DNA from: Acidobacteriota bacterium
GTDB taxonomy: Bacteria; Planctomycetota; Phycisphaerae; WQYP01; JAJZKJ01
DNA length: 8,302 nucleotides
Direction of reading: 5' to 3'
Assembly (NCBI GenBank): GCA_021804195.1
Contig: JAJZKJ010000080.1
Span: 1 to 8,302 of the forward strand
Position 1 is the stretch's first letter. Each line of letters begins with the position of its first letter. The notes beneath the pieces were generated by a model. That model was not told the DNA's origin and did no database searches. It worked only from the letters and a program-made list of their open reading frames with translations. Below, in pieces: positions 288 to 6,538 of this stretch. The position numbers and the translations under genes were made by a program.

Positions 288-1061
288 ATGGCTGGTAAAA
301 CACAAACACGATCGACGTTCGCTGTTCGGCTTCCGAACCTTGCCAAGGCCACATCGCTGCGCGATATGGGTGCCCTGATCGAGACGATGAGCGCGGCGAT
401 GGCGACAATGGCGGGATGCCCGGCGGAGGAGTTGAAGGTTGTAAAAATTCGGATGAACAGCCCTTTGGAGGTAGAGTTTCAGAGCGATCGAGTAACGGCC
501 GCGCGGGTGCAAGCCCGGGTCGACAGCCTGGCCGGGCCGATCGCGGGTGGGGCGGGCGACTCGGACGATCCGTCTCGGGGCGAGCTGGCAGAGCAGCTCG
601 ATAAATTGGCCAAAAACGCGGGCGGCAGCGTTGAACTGCGGTCCGGCGCCCGCAAATGGCGGCGATTCAGCCACCGACAACTGAACCTCATCGCGCGGGA
701 GCGTCCGCGGCTGGAACCGCTGCGGTCGTATCGCACCTCCCTTACCGGCGTGCTGGAACAGGTCACGGTTGAGGGAGATCGGAGCCGGTTTCGAATTCGA
801 GAATCCGCAACTGGCCGTAAAATCCAGTGTGATTTTCCGCAAGGCATGCTTGAGGAGGTGAAGGAGGCCTTGCCGAGCCGCGTGTGCGTCCAGGGGACCG
901 TGAAATGCCAATCGGACGGAGAAGCCGAGTCGATGGAGGTTGAGCACATCGAGACTCTTCCCGAAGCGAGCGACGTTCCACTGACGGAGTTGCAGGCGAT
1001 GGATATTACGGGGGGTGCGGACGCGGCGGACCTGATAGCGAGGCTGCGCGATGGGGAGTGA
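288..1061 (+). CDS. Hypothetical 257-aa partner of PIN nuclease, putative antitoxin
   Basis: I do not recognise this as a named family. The N-terminal part (residues 1-70) contains VVKIRMNSPLEVEF. Residues 85-125 are a Gly/Asp-rich and charged hinge. Residues 150-223 alternate beta-like segments (GVLEQV, RFRIRESATGRKIQCDFP, RVCVQGTVK, MEVEHIE), suggestive of a small OB-like or other beta-barrel nucleic-acid-binding fold. The C-terminus ends [10 protein letters not shown], like tails of proteins encoded before PIN toxins. ATG at 288 is preferred over the in-frame GTG at 276 because a GGTGGA ribosome-binding site lies 7 nt upstream. The stop overlaps the PIN gene start by 11 bp, implying translational coupling. 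By analogy with VapBC it may neutralise the PIN nuclease, but it is about three times the usual VapB length and shows no obvious VapB DNA-binding motif. It could instead be a nucleic-acid adaptor. Confidence 0.72.
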   Translation: MAGKTQTRSTFAVRLPNLAKATSLRDMGALIETMSAAMATMAGCPAEELKVVKIRMNSPLEVEFQSDRVTAARVQARVDSLAGPIAGGAGDSDDPSRGELAEQLDKLAKNAGGSVELRSGARKWRRFSHRQLNLIARERPRLEPLRSYRTSLTGVLEQVTVEGDRSRFRIRESATGRKIQCDFPQGMLEEVKEALPSRVCVQGTVKCQSDGEAESMEVEHIETLPEASDVPLTELQAMDITGGADAADLIARLRDGE

Positions 1062-1569
1062 GGCCCGCAAACAGGTTGCGTTGGACTCATGCGTGGTCAT
1101 TGACATTCTTCAGCGGGACAGCGCGAAGAATCCATGGATTATGCACCTGCTACGCGACGCGGACGCCGGCAAGGTGCGGTTGCAGGCATCCGCGCTGGCG
1201 GCGTGTGAAGTGACGCATGTCGCCGGGCGGCCCGACGCGCGGAAAGGAATCATCGATTTTTTCCGCCGGCCGGATATCGACGTTTTCCCCGTCGATATTG
1301 TTGTTGCTGATTATGTACGGGAAGTTATCGATCTGTCAGAGGGGCTCAAGCCGGCGGACGCCATCCATGTCGCCTCGGCCGCGCTTCACGGTGCCGACGT
1401 ACTGTTGACCCGCGATGCGGGCGGCGGCCGCCAGAGGAAAAGCGTGCTGTCGCTGGACGGGCGGCCGCTGCCACAGGGAAGAGACCTGCGAATCATGACG
1501 CCGCAGGGTTTTCACGACATGATGGCCAGGGCGGAAGACAAGCCCCTGATCAACGGGGCGGATGAATAG
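1051..1569 (+). CDS. PIN-domain nuclease, VapC-like toxin candidate
   Basis: This 172-residue protein has the acidic metal-binding residues of a PIN-domain ribonuclease in the right order: D12 (in [10 protein letters not shown]), E53 (ACEVTHV), D103 ([11 protein letters not shown]) and D122 (LLTRDAG). The [11 protein letters not shown] strand at the N-terminus, the DAIHVASA helix and the VLLTRD strand are typical of VapC-type toxins, which cleave tRNA or rRNA with Mg2+ or Mn2+. About 30 residues after the last strand (to LINGADE) form a longer tail than in minimal VapC proteins. The ATG lies inside the upstream gene (11-bp overlap), so both are probably translated from one mRNA. The last 20 bases overlap the 3' end of hsdM on the other strand. 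The PIN fold is well supported. That it acts as a toxin is inferred from gene order and coupling. Confidence 0.85.
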
Positions 1570-3142
1570 GGCCCTCCGGCCCGCCGTCCATTGGGAAGCC
1601 GATCGAGGCGAGGTTTTTGCGTATCTCCGTTTCGAGCCTTGCCGATTCGGCGAACTGCTGTGCGAGGGTTGTGGTAAGGCGTTTCATCTTGGATTCAAAA
1701 GGCTCGCCGTCGTCGGCCACGTCGGCGGCGCCAACGTAGCGGCCCGGCGTGAGGATGTAGCCGTGGGATTCAACCTCGGACTTCTTTACGGATTTGCAAA
1801 AGCCGGCGACGTCCGAGTAGTTTCCCGCCCCCTTCTCGCCCCGCCAGGCGTGGTAGGCCCCGCTGATTTTGGCGATGTCGGCATCGGTAAGCTCGCGGTG
1901 GGTCCTGTCGGTCATGGCGCCGAGCTTGCGGGCATCAATAAACAGGATTTCCCCCTTGCGTGGGCGGAAAGCCCCGCCGGATCTGTTGCGGGAGATGAAC
2001 CACAGGCAGACCGGAATCTGGGTGGTGTAGAAGAGCTGCACAGGCAGCGCGATCATGCAGTCCAGGAGATCGGCCTCGACAATGGCCCGGCGTATTTCCC
2101 CCTCGCCGGAGGTGTTGGAGCTCATGGAGCCGTTGGCCATCACAAAGCCGGCGGTTCCTCCGGGGGCGAGGTGATGAATGAAGTGTTGAATCCATGCGTA
2201 ATTGGCGTTGCCGTTGGGGGGAATACCGAATTTCCATCGCGGGTCCGATCTGAGGCGGTCGGCTCCCCAATCGCTCATGTTGAACGGCGGGTTGGCCAGA
2301 ATGAAATCGGCCTTGAGGTCCTTGTGAAGGTCCTGGTGGAATGAGTCGGCGTGGTGCGGACCGAGGTCGGCGTCAATGCCGCGGATGGCGAGATTCATTT
2401 TGGCCAGCCGCCATGTGGTGGGATTGGATTCCTGCCCGTAGACGGCGATGTCTCCAATGCGGCCCCCATGGGCGAGCACAAATTTCTCAGATTGGACGAA
2501 CATGCCGCCTGAGCCGCAGCACGGGTCGAAGATGCGGCCGTGGTACGGCTCGATCATTTCGGTGAGGAGCTTCACGACGCAAGCTGGCGTGTAGAACTCA
2601 CCACCACCTTTGCCTTCTGCGGAGGCGAAACGGCCGAGGAAATATTCATAGACCCGGCCGAGCAGGTCCTTGGAGCGACTCTCCGCGTCACCAAGGCCAA
2701 TGTTGGAGAGCAGGTCAATCAATTCGCCGAGACGGGCCTTGTCAAGCGCCGGGCGGGCATAGTCTTTGGGCAACACGCCCTTGAGGCCGACGTTTTCCTT
2801 CTCGATCGCGATCATGGCGTCATCGATCATACGGCCGATGTCGGCTTGTTTGGCGGCCGCCTGCAGCAGGGGCCAGCGGGCCGACTTGGGAACCCAGAAA
2901 ACGTTTTTGGACGTGTACTCGTCGCGATCTTCCGGGTCAGCGCCTCGTTCGGTCCGCAGGGCGTTGTATCGCTCCTGGAAAGAGTCGGAGATATATTTCA
3001 GGAATAGCAGGCCAAGCACGACATGCTTGTATTCGGCCGAGTCCATGTGGCCGCGGAGCTTGTCGGCGGCGGCCCAGAGGGTGGCTTCAAAGCCCAGGGG
3101 GCTGGAACCCCCGCCATTTGGTGCCTTACGCGCTTTGGCCAT
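1550..3142 (-). CDS. hsdM: Type I restriction-modification N6-adenine DNA methyltransferase
   Basis: This 530-residue protein is the modification subunit of a type I system; it transfers a methyl group from S-adenosylmethionine to adenine N6. Residues about 16-150 are the helical HsdM N-terminal domain ([31 protein letters not shown]). Then follow [11 protein letters not shown], motif [11 protein letters not shown] (206-215), the catalytic NPPF motif IV (284-287) and the C-terminal [10 protein letters not shown] segment, ending in [12 protein letters not shown] as in complete family members. Length is normal and no frameshift is seen. ATG at 3142 (MAKARK) is preferred over an upstream TTG at 3157; a weak GGAAG site lies 4 nt before it. 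HsdM needs HsdS for target recognition, yet neither hsdS nor hsdR is in the window. Downstream of hsdM is the convergent PIN module, and upstream is repeat-rich DNA. The partners may lie left of position 1 or be lost. Confidence 0.95.
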
Positions 3143-3178
3143 GCAACTTCCGTCCAACAGACAACCACGGCAGGCAGG

Positions 3179-3433: not shown

Positions 3434-3557
3434 TCACGCTGGCGCGTGATGTGATCCGCTTTTTTGTCACGCTAAGACAGACGAAGCAATCTTTTCGTTA
3501 AATCTGATACCCTTCGCAGCGCTACCGCCGGCAAGCCGGCGGCTTTATGGCGGCACA
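3434..3557 (+). repeat. 124-bp hairpin-T6 repeat, copy B (left of primase gene)
   Basis: The element starts with a perfect hairpin TCACGC-TGGC-GCGTGA (3434-3449), then 10 nt, then TTTTTT (3460-3465). Its body is conserved: ACGAA-N8-TTCGT is a second small stem, and CCGCCGGC-AA-GCCGGCGG (3525-3542) is a perfect third one. Positions 3448-3557 align without gaps to 6429-6538 with 12 mismatches in 110. It has the same orientation as copy C on the far side of the primase-helicase gene. It encodes no plausible protein, so it is either a dispersed structured repeat, the edge of a cassette, or a small structured RNA. Confidence 0.85.
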
Positions 3558-3575
3558 TGAATGCGCCGGCTTACC
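3550..3575. repeat. 26-bp REP-like palindromic repeat, copy 2
   Basis: GCGGCACAT-GA-ATGCGCCGG followed by CTTACC matches the copy at 3251-3276 in 23 of 26 positions. Its first 8 bases overlap the end of hairpin-T6 copy B. Copy C of that element does not continue into this unit, so the two are separate repeats that abut here. Confidence 0.55.
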
Positions 3576-3727
3576 ATCTGTATCGTCCGGTCCCCCGACA
3601 TCGCAGCCTCCGAGATATCCCAGCGAAATCCCATCCATTTCTCACTTCTCCTGCCCGGACGCATATAGCGAGGCGGGGCCTGCGGCGCGGATGCCGCGGG
3701 ATAACGACACCGGGCCTGAACCAACTT

Positions 3728-3732
3728 GGAGG
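3728..3732 (+). promoter_or_regulatory. Shine-Dalgarno site that fixes the primase start
   Basis: A GGAGG core lies 4 nt before the ATG at 3737 and is the best ribosome-binding site in this frame. The frame is open upstream to an ATG at 3557, but that extra 60-residue stretch is low in recognisable structure and begins at the edge of repeat copy B, so it is probably not translated. Confidence 0.75.
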
Positions 3733-3736
3733 AATT

Positions 3737-6214
3737 ATGACGACGCCGCCTTCATCTCCCGATCATGCACGGAATTTGGAAATTTTTCGCAAACTGATGG
3801 CCGACCGGGGTTGGTGGATTGTGCCGATCCCGTTGCGGGAAAAAGGGCCGCGGATAAAGGGGTGGCGGGAGATGCGCATCGGCCCCGAGGATTTCGACCG
3901 GTATTTTCACGCTCCCTGCAATGCGGGCATTATCCTCGGCCTGCCGGATACCGATGGCCGGTACCTGATCGATATCGATCTGGATTCGCCGGAGGCGGTG
4001 CAGCTGGCGAAAAATTATCTGCCTCAGACGGACTGCATCTTCGGCCGGGTGGGGAAGCCTGCATCGCATCGGCTTTACTGCGTTCGGACGCCGATTGCGC
4101 GGCAGGTGTACCGATCGGCTGCTGGGGCGATGATCGCTGAAATTCGCGGCAGCGGATGCCAGACCGTGGCCCCCGGCAGCGTACACCCGAGCGGCGAACC
4201 GATTGCATGGGTGCGCGATGGCCAACCGGCGGAGATAGCGTTGGAGGTGCTGCTGGCCGCGGTGGAGAATCTGGCGGTGGTGTGCGGATGGCGGAAACCG
4301 TCCGGCCGGGCAGCACCGATCAGCTTGCCGCCGCACCATGAATCACCGCGCCGCGAGCCGCCGCCCCCCGAGTCGCCGGCTTCTGGCCCGCCGGAAGAGA
4401 GCACGCCGGAAGACATCTGGTACCGGCGATGTCAAAACTATCTGGCCAAGCTGCCGCGAAGCATCTCCGGACACGGCGGGCACGATGCGATGCTGCGGGC
4501 GTGCTGCGAAATTTACCGGTTCGGCTTCGACGACGCCGACGCGTGGCAACTGGCGGACTGGTTCAACACGAACATGTGCGATCCGCCGTGGGATGAAAAA
4601 GAACTGGGGCACAAACTGGCGGACGCCAACGAAAAAGTGTCTGTGAGGGGAGAATTTGCCAAATGGCGGCAGTGGCGGCCCACGGGGACGGCGCTCCCCG
4701 CACCCAAGGCCCCGCCTGCGTCCACGCCCGCGCCCAAGCCCCCGCCCGCACCCGCGCCCAAGCCCGCTTCCGCTTCCGCACCCAAGCCGGCTCCCGCACC
4801 CTCACCGGGGCCCACCCCCGCAGCAACACCTGCGCCCGCCATGGCGGCCGGAACCCAGCGGAATCATCATGAGATTCAATTCACGGATGTCGGCAACGGC
4901 CAGCGGCTGGCACGCCGCCACGGCAGCAATATCCGCCATGTGTCGGGGATCGGCTGGTACGTGTGGAATGGCATCCGCTGGCGGCTGGATGACACGCTGG
5001 AGATCGACCGGCTGGCAAAAGAGACCGTGCGGGCGATGTTGGCGGATTCAGCGAAGGCGGCGGATGACGCGCAGCGGCGGGCATTGGCCAGGCACGCCCT
5101 TGCAAGCGAATCTGCCGTGCGCCTGCGGGCGATGGTGAATCTGGCGGCATCGGAGCCGGGCATCGCCATCCGGGCGGAGGAGCTCGATGCGGATCCATGG
5201 CTATTGAATGTGAACAACGGCATCCTTGATCTGCGTAATGGGGCATTTCACCTGCACGATCCGGCGAAGCTGCAGAGCAAACTGGCGCCGGTCGATTACG
5301 ATCCCGACGCGCCCTGCCCGCGTTTTGACCAGTTTCTCACGGAGATTTTCGGCGAGGGGAACGAACTTCCGCAGTATGCGGCCCGATTATTTGGCATGTG
5401 CCTCACCGGCGACACCCGCGAACAGATTCTGCCGATTCTGTGGGGCGAGGGGCAGAATGGAAAGTCAACGCTTGTGGGCATCATCATGCACATCATGGGC
5501 GATTATGCCGGGCTGGCGGCGGAATCGTTGCTGATGGTGGGGCGACACGAGGAGCACCCGTGCAGCCTTGCCGACATGCAGGGGAAGCGGATGGTGGTGG
5601 CGTCGGAGACGGAATCGGCCGGGCGTCTGAAGATGCAGCTGATCAAGCGGCTCACGGGGGACGAAACGATCAAGGCCCGGCGGATGCGGGAGAATTACTA
5701 TGAATTTCCGCGGACGCATAAAACGATTCTGCAAACGAATAACAAGCCCCGGATCAATGAGAACTCCAAGGCGGTGTGGCGGCGGGTTCAACTGATACCG
5801 TTTAACGTGATCATTCCCGATGATAAAAAAGATACGGAATTGCTCTGGAAGCTCAAGGCCGAGGCGAGCGGCATTTTGAATTGGCTTATCGGGGGATGCC
5901 TGGACTGGCAGCGGCAGGGGCTCGGTGAGCCGCTGGAAGTGAAGCACGCGACGGAAGCGTATCGGGAGGAGAGCGATCCGCTGCGGGAATTTTTGGAGGA
6001 GCGGTGTGTGGAAGCGCCTGGGGCGTGGACAGCGACCGGCGAATTGTACGCTGCGTACACCCGATGGTGCGAGGCAAGCATGGAGCGGCCGATGGGGAAG
6101 AAGCAGTTTGGGGAAGCGATGGCGCGGAGCGGATTTGAAGTGGAAAAGAGGCACGACGGCTGGGGCCGGAAAGGGATTGAATTGAAGCCGGAATTTGCGC
6201 CAAGTTTTGCGTAG
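3737..6214 (+). CDS. Prim-Pol primase fused to SF3 (D5/P4-type) helicase
   Basis: This 825-residue replication protein makes primers and unwinds DNA for a phage, plasmid or integrated element. Residues 20-180 form the bifunctional primase/polymerase domain: catalytic DIDLD (79-83), a basic HRLYC strand (111-115) and the GCQTVAPGSVHPSGEPIAW segment (140-158). Residues 225-305 look like a primase C-terminal helical domain (HGGHDAMLRACCEIYRFG). Residues 317-370 are an Ala/Pro/Lys linker with repeated APKP units. Residues 380-560 are D5_N-like (GWYVWNGIRWRLDD, LLNVNNGILDLRNG). The SF3 ATPase follows: Walker A GEGQNGKST (570-578), Walker B region KRMVVASETE (617-626) and motif C TILQTNNKPRI (663-673). 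The C-terminal part resembles a winged-helix tail. All key residues are present and no frameshift is seen. It stands alone, without integrase, Rep or capsid genes, between two direct repeats, with an iteron-like cluster right after the stop. Confidence 0.93.
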   Translation: MTTPPSSPDHARNLEIFRKLMADRGWWIVPIPLREKGPRIKGWREMRIGPEDFDRYFHAPCNAGIILGLPDTDGRYLIDIDLDSPEAVQLAKNYLPQTDCIFGRVGKPASHRLYCVRTPIARQVYRSAAGAMIAEIRGSGCQTVAPGSVHPSGEPIAWVRDGQPAEIALEVLLAAVENLAVVCGWRKPSGRAAPISLPPHHESPRREPPPPESPASGPPEESTPEDIWYRRCQNYLAKLPRSISGHGGHDAMLRACCEIYRFGFDDADAWQLADWFNTNMCDPPWDEKELGHKLADANEKVSVRGEFAKWRQWRPTGTALPAPKAPPASTPAPKPPPAPAPKPASASAPKPAPAPSPGPTPAATPAPAMAAGTQRNHHEIQFTDVGNGQRLARRHGSNIRHVSGIGWYVWNGIRWRLDDTLEIDRLAKETVRAMLADSAKAADDAQRRALARHALASESAVRLRAMVNLAASEPGIAIRAEELDADPWLLNVNNGILDLRNGAFHLHDPAKLQSKLAPVDYDPDAPCPRFDQFLTEIFGEGNELPQYAARLFGMCLTGDTREQILPILWGEGQNGKSTLVGIIMHIMGDYAGLAAESLLMVGRHEEHPCSLADMQGKRMVVASETESAGRLKMQLIKRLTGDETIKARRMRENYYEFPRTHKTILQTNNKPRINENSKAVWRRVQLIPFNVIIPDDKKDTELLWKLKAEASGILNWLIGGCLDWQRQGLGEPLEVKHATEAYREESDPLREFLEERCVEAPGAWTATGELYAAYTRWCEASMERPMGKKQFGEAMARSGFEVEKRHDGWGRKGIELKPEFAPSFA

Positions 6215-6218
6215 CGCC

Positions 6219-6322
6219 GTGACATTGTGACAAATGGTGACATGACTTTCCCTATGACGCTATATGAAAAAAAAATTATTCTGCTCATACGGAAAACAGT
6301 GTCACGAAATGTCACATGTCAC
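6219..6322. other. Mirrored GTGACA iteron cluster, candidate replication origin
   Basis: GTGACA occurs at 6219-6224, 6227-6232 and 6237-6242. The inverse, TGTCAC, occurs at 6300-6305, 6310-6315 and 6317-6322. The inner pair on each side has the same architecture, T-GTGACA-N4-GTGACA, giving 17-bp arms that match in 14 positions. Between them lie 57 bases, 38 of them A or T, including nine consecutive A, in an otherwise GC-rich window. Short iterons beside an AT-rich tract, next to a primase-helicase gene, are the layout of origins used by P4-type alpha proteins, which bind their own origin. Alternatives are a regulator site or a long hairpin. Origin function is inferred. Confidence 0.5.
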
Positions 6323-6414
6323 AAGACCCGCATTATTTTGCAAATAACGCCACTTCCGTGACGCACCGGCCGCTGCCATTTTGGCATTGCCGGGCTCCGG
6401 CGGGGGCGCGGACC

Positions 6415-6538
6415 CATGCCAGTGGCATGATGTCATTTGCTTTTTTCCCACACCAAGGCAGACGAAGCAATCTTTTCGTTAAATCTGATAGCCTTCGCAG
6501 CACTACCGCCGGCAAGCCAGCGGCTATATGGCGGCACA
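6415..6538 (+). repeat. 124-bp hairpin-T6 repeat, copy C (right of primase gene)
   Basis: This is the direct-orientation partner of 3434-3557. The stem is CATGCC-AGT-GGCATG (6415-6429), different in sequence from copies A and B but still perfectly paired, again followed at the same distance by TTTTTT (6441-6446). The body after the hairpin (6429-6538) matches copy B in 98 of 110 positions without gaps. The third stem has lost one pair (CCGCCGGC-AA-GCCAGCGG). The spacing between corresponding bases of B and C is 2981 bp, which covers exactly one primase-helicase gene and the candidate origin. Confidence 0.85.

What the first reader, a model, noticed from the sequence alone, without database searches (positions are those of the whole stretch)
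6219..6322. Mirrored GTGACA iterons around an AT-rich tract next to a primase-helicase: candidate origin
Three GTGACA motifs and three inverted copies lie symmetrically about a 57-bp tract that is two-thirds A/T, starting 4 bp after the primase-helicase stop codon. The inner pairs share the exact T-GTGACA-N4-GTGACA layout. Prim-Pol/SF3 proteins of the P4 and phage type recognise origins near their own gene, so this could be a complete one-gene replicon: replication protein plus its origin.
Basis: partly seen in the sequence, partly recalled or inferred. Interest (0 to 1): 0.72.

Follow-up and report, generated by a model that had tools for sequence, protein, structure and literature searches.

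The report
Mirrored-repeat origin behind primase-helicase gene
Right behind a phage-type DNA-copying gene lies a short stretch of mirrored repeats that is probably the start site which that gene's own protein recognises; many related genes carry the same layout with a different repeat word, and the word tends to change together with the DNA-reading part of the protein.

Summary
GTGACA is not conserved, but the layout is: relatives at 81, 46 and 40% identity carry ATGTCGC, ATGACGC and GTAACCG arms at the stop codon. A scan scores mirrored arrays at 61 of 107 related 3' ends against 34 of 1396 control ORF ends; 46 of 107 miss. Among 40 chosen loci with 28 words, word similarity follows the recognition helix and wing of the C-terminal winged helix (partial rank r 0.22, permutation p 0.0002), not the helicase. 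In a Proteobacterial branch all 20 GACGG-type rows have Lys in the recognition helix; 3 of 53 GACGC-type rows do. Best reading: an origin of the kind known from PICI/SaPI elements (two iteron sets flanking a tract 3' of rep), here in phage-type genes. New member of a known kind; the changing word coupled to the protein is the interesting part. Binding and replication were not tested, and 'one-gene replicon' is unproven.

The parts
3737..6214 (+). primase-helicase, 825 aa: Prim-Pol, D5_N, DUF5906 (SF3 helicase), Pox_D5 winged helix
   Evidence: Pfam, PHROGs DNA primase families, AF2 model and fold match to AsfvPrimPol and poxvirus D5/E5; dN/dS 0.27 against L004
5972..6211 (+). codons of the C-terminal winged helix (residues 746-825); recognition helix 788-797 = 6098-6127
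6219..6242 (+). left arm: three GTGACA repeats (6219, 6227, 6237)
   Evidence: score 5.7 against controls
6243..6299 (.). A/T-rich centre, 57 bp
   Evidence: sequence
6247..6257 (+). inner inverted repeat, left half TTTCCCTATGA
   Evidence: sequence; present in relatives
6285..6295 (-). inner inverted repeat, right half (TTTCCGTATGA on -), one base different from the left half
   Evidence: sequence
6300..6322 (-). right arm: three inverted GTGACA repeats (6300, 6310, 6317)
6332..6353 (.). near-palindrome GCATTATTTTGCAAATAACGCC behind the array, role unknown
   Evidence: identical in L004, 2 mismatches in L005, in all six G001 origin copies with at most 1 mismatch

Best explanation
6215-6326, perhaps to 6353, is a replication origin recognised by the protein encoded just before it. 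The C-terminal winged helix binds the repeats; the two arms, facing each other, load two SF3 helicase rings; these melt the centre; the Prim-Pol domain primes on the opened strands. The repeat word may change as long as the recognition helix and wing change with it, so lineages carry their own lock and key. Shown here: the array, its kept position and layout, the changing word, and a statistical coupling of word and winged helix. Inferred from published work on PICI/SaPI, Cch2 and P4: binding, ring loading, melting and priming.
For: Array at the stop codon in W, L004, L005, L013 with different words. Scan: 61 of 107 family 3' ends at score 3.85 or more against 34 of 1396 control ORF ends; 10 of 107 against 0 of 1396 at 5.7 or more; 24 of 41 representatives at 60% identity. 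Known cases found by the same scan: Sfi21, whose record annotates an origin at the 3' end of the primase gene (score 4.55), and P4 crr behind alpha (score 5.25). Words follow the recognition helix and wing, not the helicase (40 loci). GACGG-type repeats go with Lys in the recognition helix, 20 of 20 against 3 of 53. Winged helix resembles the P4 origin-binding domain. dN/dS 0.27.
Against: 46 of 107 3' ends miss the threshold, among them 10 of 13 annotated phage records other than P4; BIP-1 shows no array at the place tried. In the Proteobacterial branch the centre is not A/T-rich (32-49% A/T in the rows). On well-supported branches only 3 independent word changes exist, too few for that test to be significant. 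In stranded copies L105 and L108 the two arms carry different words. P4's annotated rep_origin lies elsewhere, crr being a cis-required region. No binding or replication was measured.
Confidence: 0.82

Rival explanations
1. The DNA shape, not the repeat words, is read: the two arms extrude a stem-loop, as proposed for plasmid pRN1.
For: The window strand folds with z -5.0, 0 of 200 shuffles as good. For pRN1 an essential stem-loop lies downstream of a Prim-Pol/SF3/winged-helix gene and is unconserved in sequence (PMC4234260, passages).
Against: The arms are out of register by 1 bp in the window, L005 and L086. Words covary with the winged helix. For Cch2, deleting the direct repeats abolished binding and deleting the inverted repeats did not (PMC7581432, passages).
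Confidence: 0.08
2. Fossil: a once working origin in a prophage remnant, without function today.
For: No recognisable phage genes around it in the window apart from a methylase family; G001 holds five origin copies behind broken gene ends.
Against: The window frame is complete, with dN/dS 0.27 against L004, and all six repeats are exact. This shows past selection, not present activity; the reading is compatible with the main one as to what the array is.
Confidence: 0.3
3. Operator or terminator: the repeats control the gene rather than start replication.
For: Inverted repeats at a gene's 3' end can end transcription (general knowledge).
Against: The array lies behind the gene, not at its promoter. 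In L233, L237 and L243 an array was scored inside the open frame, before the stop (a scan without its own control). Sfi21 and P4 positions are annotated as origin and cis-required replication region.
Confidence: 0.06

Closest known systems
PICI/SaPI pri-rep-ori module
   Same: Origin immediately 3' of the initiator gene; [quoted passage not shown] SaPI Rep reads the iterons with its C-terminal domain (PMC7581432, passages)
   Different: The window shows no PICI gene set; the closest relative lies in a phage or prophage; Prim-Pol, helicase and winged helix are one protein (also seen in some PICIs); word differs
Sfi21-type streptococcal phage origin
   Same: Annotated origin at the 3' end of the primase gene; mirrored array found by the scan
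   Different: Different word (AGTAACC), distant protein; record also calls it a phage inhibitory sequence
Phage P4 alpha and crr
   Same: Repeats in ++ / -- order just behind alpha; similar winged helix 1ka8
   Different: P4 also has an annotated rep_origin far from alpha; different word; 120-bp unit in two copies
SCCmec Cch2 and its direct repeats
   Same: D5_N-type helicase whose C-terminal domain binds repeats downstream of its gene (PMC7581432, passages)
   Different: Three direct repeats needed, not a mirrored set; separate primase
Crenarchaeal plasmid pRN1 (ORF904)
   Same: Prim-Pol, SF3 helicase and winged helix; essential element just downstream, fast-changing sequence with kept symmetry (PMC4234260, passages)
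   Different: Described as a stem-loop, not iterons; not scanned here

Membership tests
PICI/SaPI-type origin | Lies immediately 3' of the initiator gene | tested here: met
   4 bp after the stop codon
PICI/SaPI-type origin | Two sets of iterons flank an AT-rich region | tested here: met
   Three and three repeats around 57 bp, 38 of 57 A/T. In Proteobacterial relatives the centre is not A/T-rich
PICI/SaPI-type origin | Initiator binds its own iterons with its C-terminal domain | not testable with these tools
   Only indirect: word-winged helix covariation
PICI/SaPI-type origin | Gene plus origin drives autonomous replication | not testable with these tools
   -
PICI (the mobile element) | Integrase, regulators and satellite gene set around the replication module | tested here: inconclusive
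   None seen in the 8.3-kb window, which is short; L004 has a terminase and a ParB-like gene
P4 alpha-type initiator | Primase, SF3 helicase and C-terminal origin-binding winged helix | tested here: met
pRN1-type stem-loop origin | Long intact stem formed by the two arms | tested here: inconclusive
   z -5.0, but the arms are out of register by 1 bp

The most novel reading that the evidence does not exclude
Initiator and origin of this family change together as a lock-and-key cassette across phyla, giving many mutually exclusive replication specificities. Hosts such as G001 keep several stranded origins with words of their own, which could act as decoys that draw incoming phage initiators (the Sfi21 origin is annotated as a phage inhibitory sequence).
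Probability: 0.12. Interest if true: 0.82.

Novelty: new member of a known kind. Interest (0 to 1): 0.56.

Why it matters
[quoted passage not shown] Here the layout appears behind D5-type primase-helicases outside recognised PICIs, in records titled Planctomycetota, Chloroflexi, Bacillota, Acidobacteria, Armatimonadota, Actinobacteria and Proteobacteria and in viral contigs (metagenome bin titles may err), with 28 words among 40 loci. That is a natural data set for working out how a winged helix chooses its DNA word, and a sequence-only way to propose origins for uncultured phages and satellites.

Tried and rejected
GTGACA as a conserved motif: rejected; L004, L005 and L013 have no GTGACA array. 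The 114-bp direct repeats (3444-3557 / 6425-6538, 89%) as ends of a one-gene mobile element: rejected; pieces of this repeat match at 12 places of G001, 10 of them not beside an origin copy. Stranded origins of G001 as a transposing miniature element: weakened; three copies share upstream sequence, but in L134 this runs into a frame that reads like a propeller-type regulator (name recalled), so duplication of host segments would explain it. Exact search for a 21-bp piece of the near-palindrome in viral contigs: 0 hits. Pattern scan of three genomes: 23 matches, 17 in G002, of which 15 are another dispersed sequence. Whole genome and read depth of the window: not held. BIP-1: no array at the place named in the pRN1 paper. 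Wider scan around the stop: arrays in 9 of the 19 Planctomycetota loci that had missed; it has no control of its own and is not counted. Profile search of the winged helix against PDB sequences: nothing significant, best E 0.077. Paper searches (lists of 12-20 titles seen, 3) showed no title or abstract start describing this layout in phages; subscription papers and preprints are not held, and I read passages of three papers only. That entry 7ola is the SaPI5 protein is recalled; one search names it only 'DNA primase'.

Full report
What is there. The window holds an 825-residue primase-helicase at 3737-6214 with Prim-Pol, D5_N, DUF5906 and Pox_D5 domains. Four bases after its stop codon the array begins: GTGACA at 6219, 6227 and 6237, then 57 bp of which 38 are A/T, then inverted copies at 6300, 6310 and 6317. 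The window has seven GTGACA copies; none of 200 shuffles reaches seven. Inside the centre lies a second inverted repeat, 6247-6257 / 6285-6295, and behind the array the near-palindrome 6332-6353.

Relatives. The protein search gave full-length relatives at 81, 71, 60 and 46% identity. DNA could be read for the 81% (L004) and 46% (L005) relatives and for one at 40% (L013). The main stretch of DNA identity between window and L004 runs from 3550 to 6376. Behind each gene lies a mirrored array with its own word: ATGTCGC in L004, ATGACGC in L005, GTAACCG in L013. The L005 genome holds a second copy, again with ATGACGC. Window, L004 and L005 share the near-palindrome with at most two mismatches; the L013 genome has none with up to three.

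How general. I scanned from 40 bp before to 180 bp after the stop codon for mirrored arrays of 7-letter words with one mismatch allowed. Of 107 scored genes 61 reach 3.85, against 34 of 1396 ends of other open frames of 250 codons or more in the same loci; at 5.7 or more it is 10 of 107 against 0 of 1396. After clustering at 60% identity 24 of 41 representatives reach 3.85. Two known cases are among the 61: Sfi21, whose record annotates a 302-bp origin at the primase gene's end, scores 4.55; P4 crr, behind alpha with type-1 repeats in ++ / -- order, scores 5.25. Against generality: 46 of 107 miss, including 10 of the 13 annotated phage records other than P4, and BIP-1 shows nothing at the place tried. 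Of 392 Planctomycetota genomes 74 have a match; of 29 loci scored there, 10 have the array at the stop codon. In a wider scan without control, L233, L237 and L243 show one inside the open frame and in L247 one straddles the stop. In the Proteobacterial rows the centre is G/C-rich and alternating, not A/T-rich.

Word and protein. Across 40 loci chosen for readable arrays, with 28 different words, word similarity correlates with identity of recognition helix plus wing (rank r 0.21, p 0.0004; given helicase identity 0.22, p 0.0002) and not with helicase identity (r -0.02, p 0.62). In the Proteobacterial branch 20 of 20 rows with GACGG-type repeats have Lys, and 50 of 53 with GACGC-type repeats have Arg, at the second residue of the recognition helix, the place of Lys789 in the window; the exceptions are L077, L078 and L194, which look alike. 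In the smaller set the wing residue goes the same way: Leu in 10 of 10 against 4 of 44. The tree built without the winged helix needs 10 changes of word class; on well-supported branches 3 independent pairs exist, 2.9 on average going the same way and none the other way; sign test p 0.25, as so few pairs cannot reach 0.05. L062 and L079 differ at 4 of 58 winged-helix positions, two of them the helix Lys/Arg and the wing Leu/Val, while both left-arm repeats change from GACGC to GACGG.

Selection. Against L004 dN/dS is 0.27 over 801 codons: the protein was kept working for much of the time since the split. This does not show present activity.

Stranded origins. G001, the genome of L004, carries five further copies of origin plus near-palindrome behind broken gene ends: L102, L105, L107, L108, L118. 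Words include GTGACGC, GTGGCGC, GGACAC and ATGACGC; in L105 and L108 the two arms differ (GTGACGC left, GTGTCGC right). The near-palindrome is 92-100% identical to L004 in the five, the origin segments 66-92%. Three copies share upstream sequence and may have been duplicated with a host gene.

Known work. [quoted passage not shown] one was tested in E. coli; [quoted passage not shown] PMC7581432 (passages): SaPI Rep recognises iterons directly downstream of its gene with its C-terminal domain; Cch2 needs its direct repeats. PMC4234260 (passages): for pRN1 a stem-loop downstream of a Prim-Pol/SF3/winged-helix gene is essential and not conserved in sequence. The window locus is best filed as an origin of the PICI kind, not as a PICI.

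Verdict. The origin reading is well supported by comparison and untested at the bench. The stand-alone replicon reading is open. What seems new is the breadth of the layout outside PICIs and the coupled change of word and winged helix.

Noticed in passing
window 3444-3557 and 6425-6538: 114-bp direct repeat, 89% identical, on both sides of the gene and origin; pieces of it match at 12 places of G001, so it looks like an ordinary dispersed repeat.
   Followed up: yes
window 6332-6353; G002 contigs: The near-palindrome behind the origin shares about 20 bp with a different sequence found 15 times in G002 with its own flanks on both sides. Why an origin and a dispersed sequence share it is unexplained.
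   Followed up: partly
L102, L105, L107, L108, L118: Five stranded origins in one genome, each behind a broken primase end, with differing words; L105 and L108 have arms with different words.
   Followed up: partly
window 6247-6257 / 6285-6295 and centres of relatives: The inner inverted repeat has CCCTA in one half and CCGTA in the other; of 72 centres examined both halves were readable in 9, and all 9 are of this unequal kind, 6 with C left and 3 with G left. It might set a direction.
   Followed up: partly
L026-L082: Centres of the Proteobacterial arrays hold long alternating tracts such as ACGCGTGCGCGTGCGCGC in place of the A/T tract.
   Followed up: no
L233, L237, L243: Arrays scored inside the open frame, in the tail behind the winged helix, so that the repeats would also be translated (no control).
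   Followed up: partly
window 1553-3157 (-) and 1051-1569 (+): Type I HsdM-like methylase without hsdR or hsdS in view, next to a PIN-domain gene that overlaps the end of an unknown frame at 276-1061.
   Followed up: no
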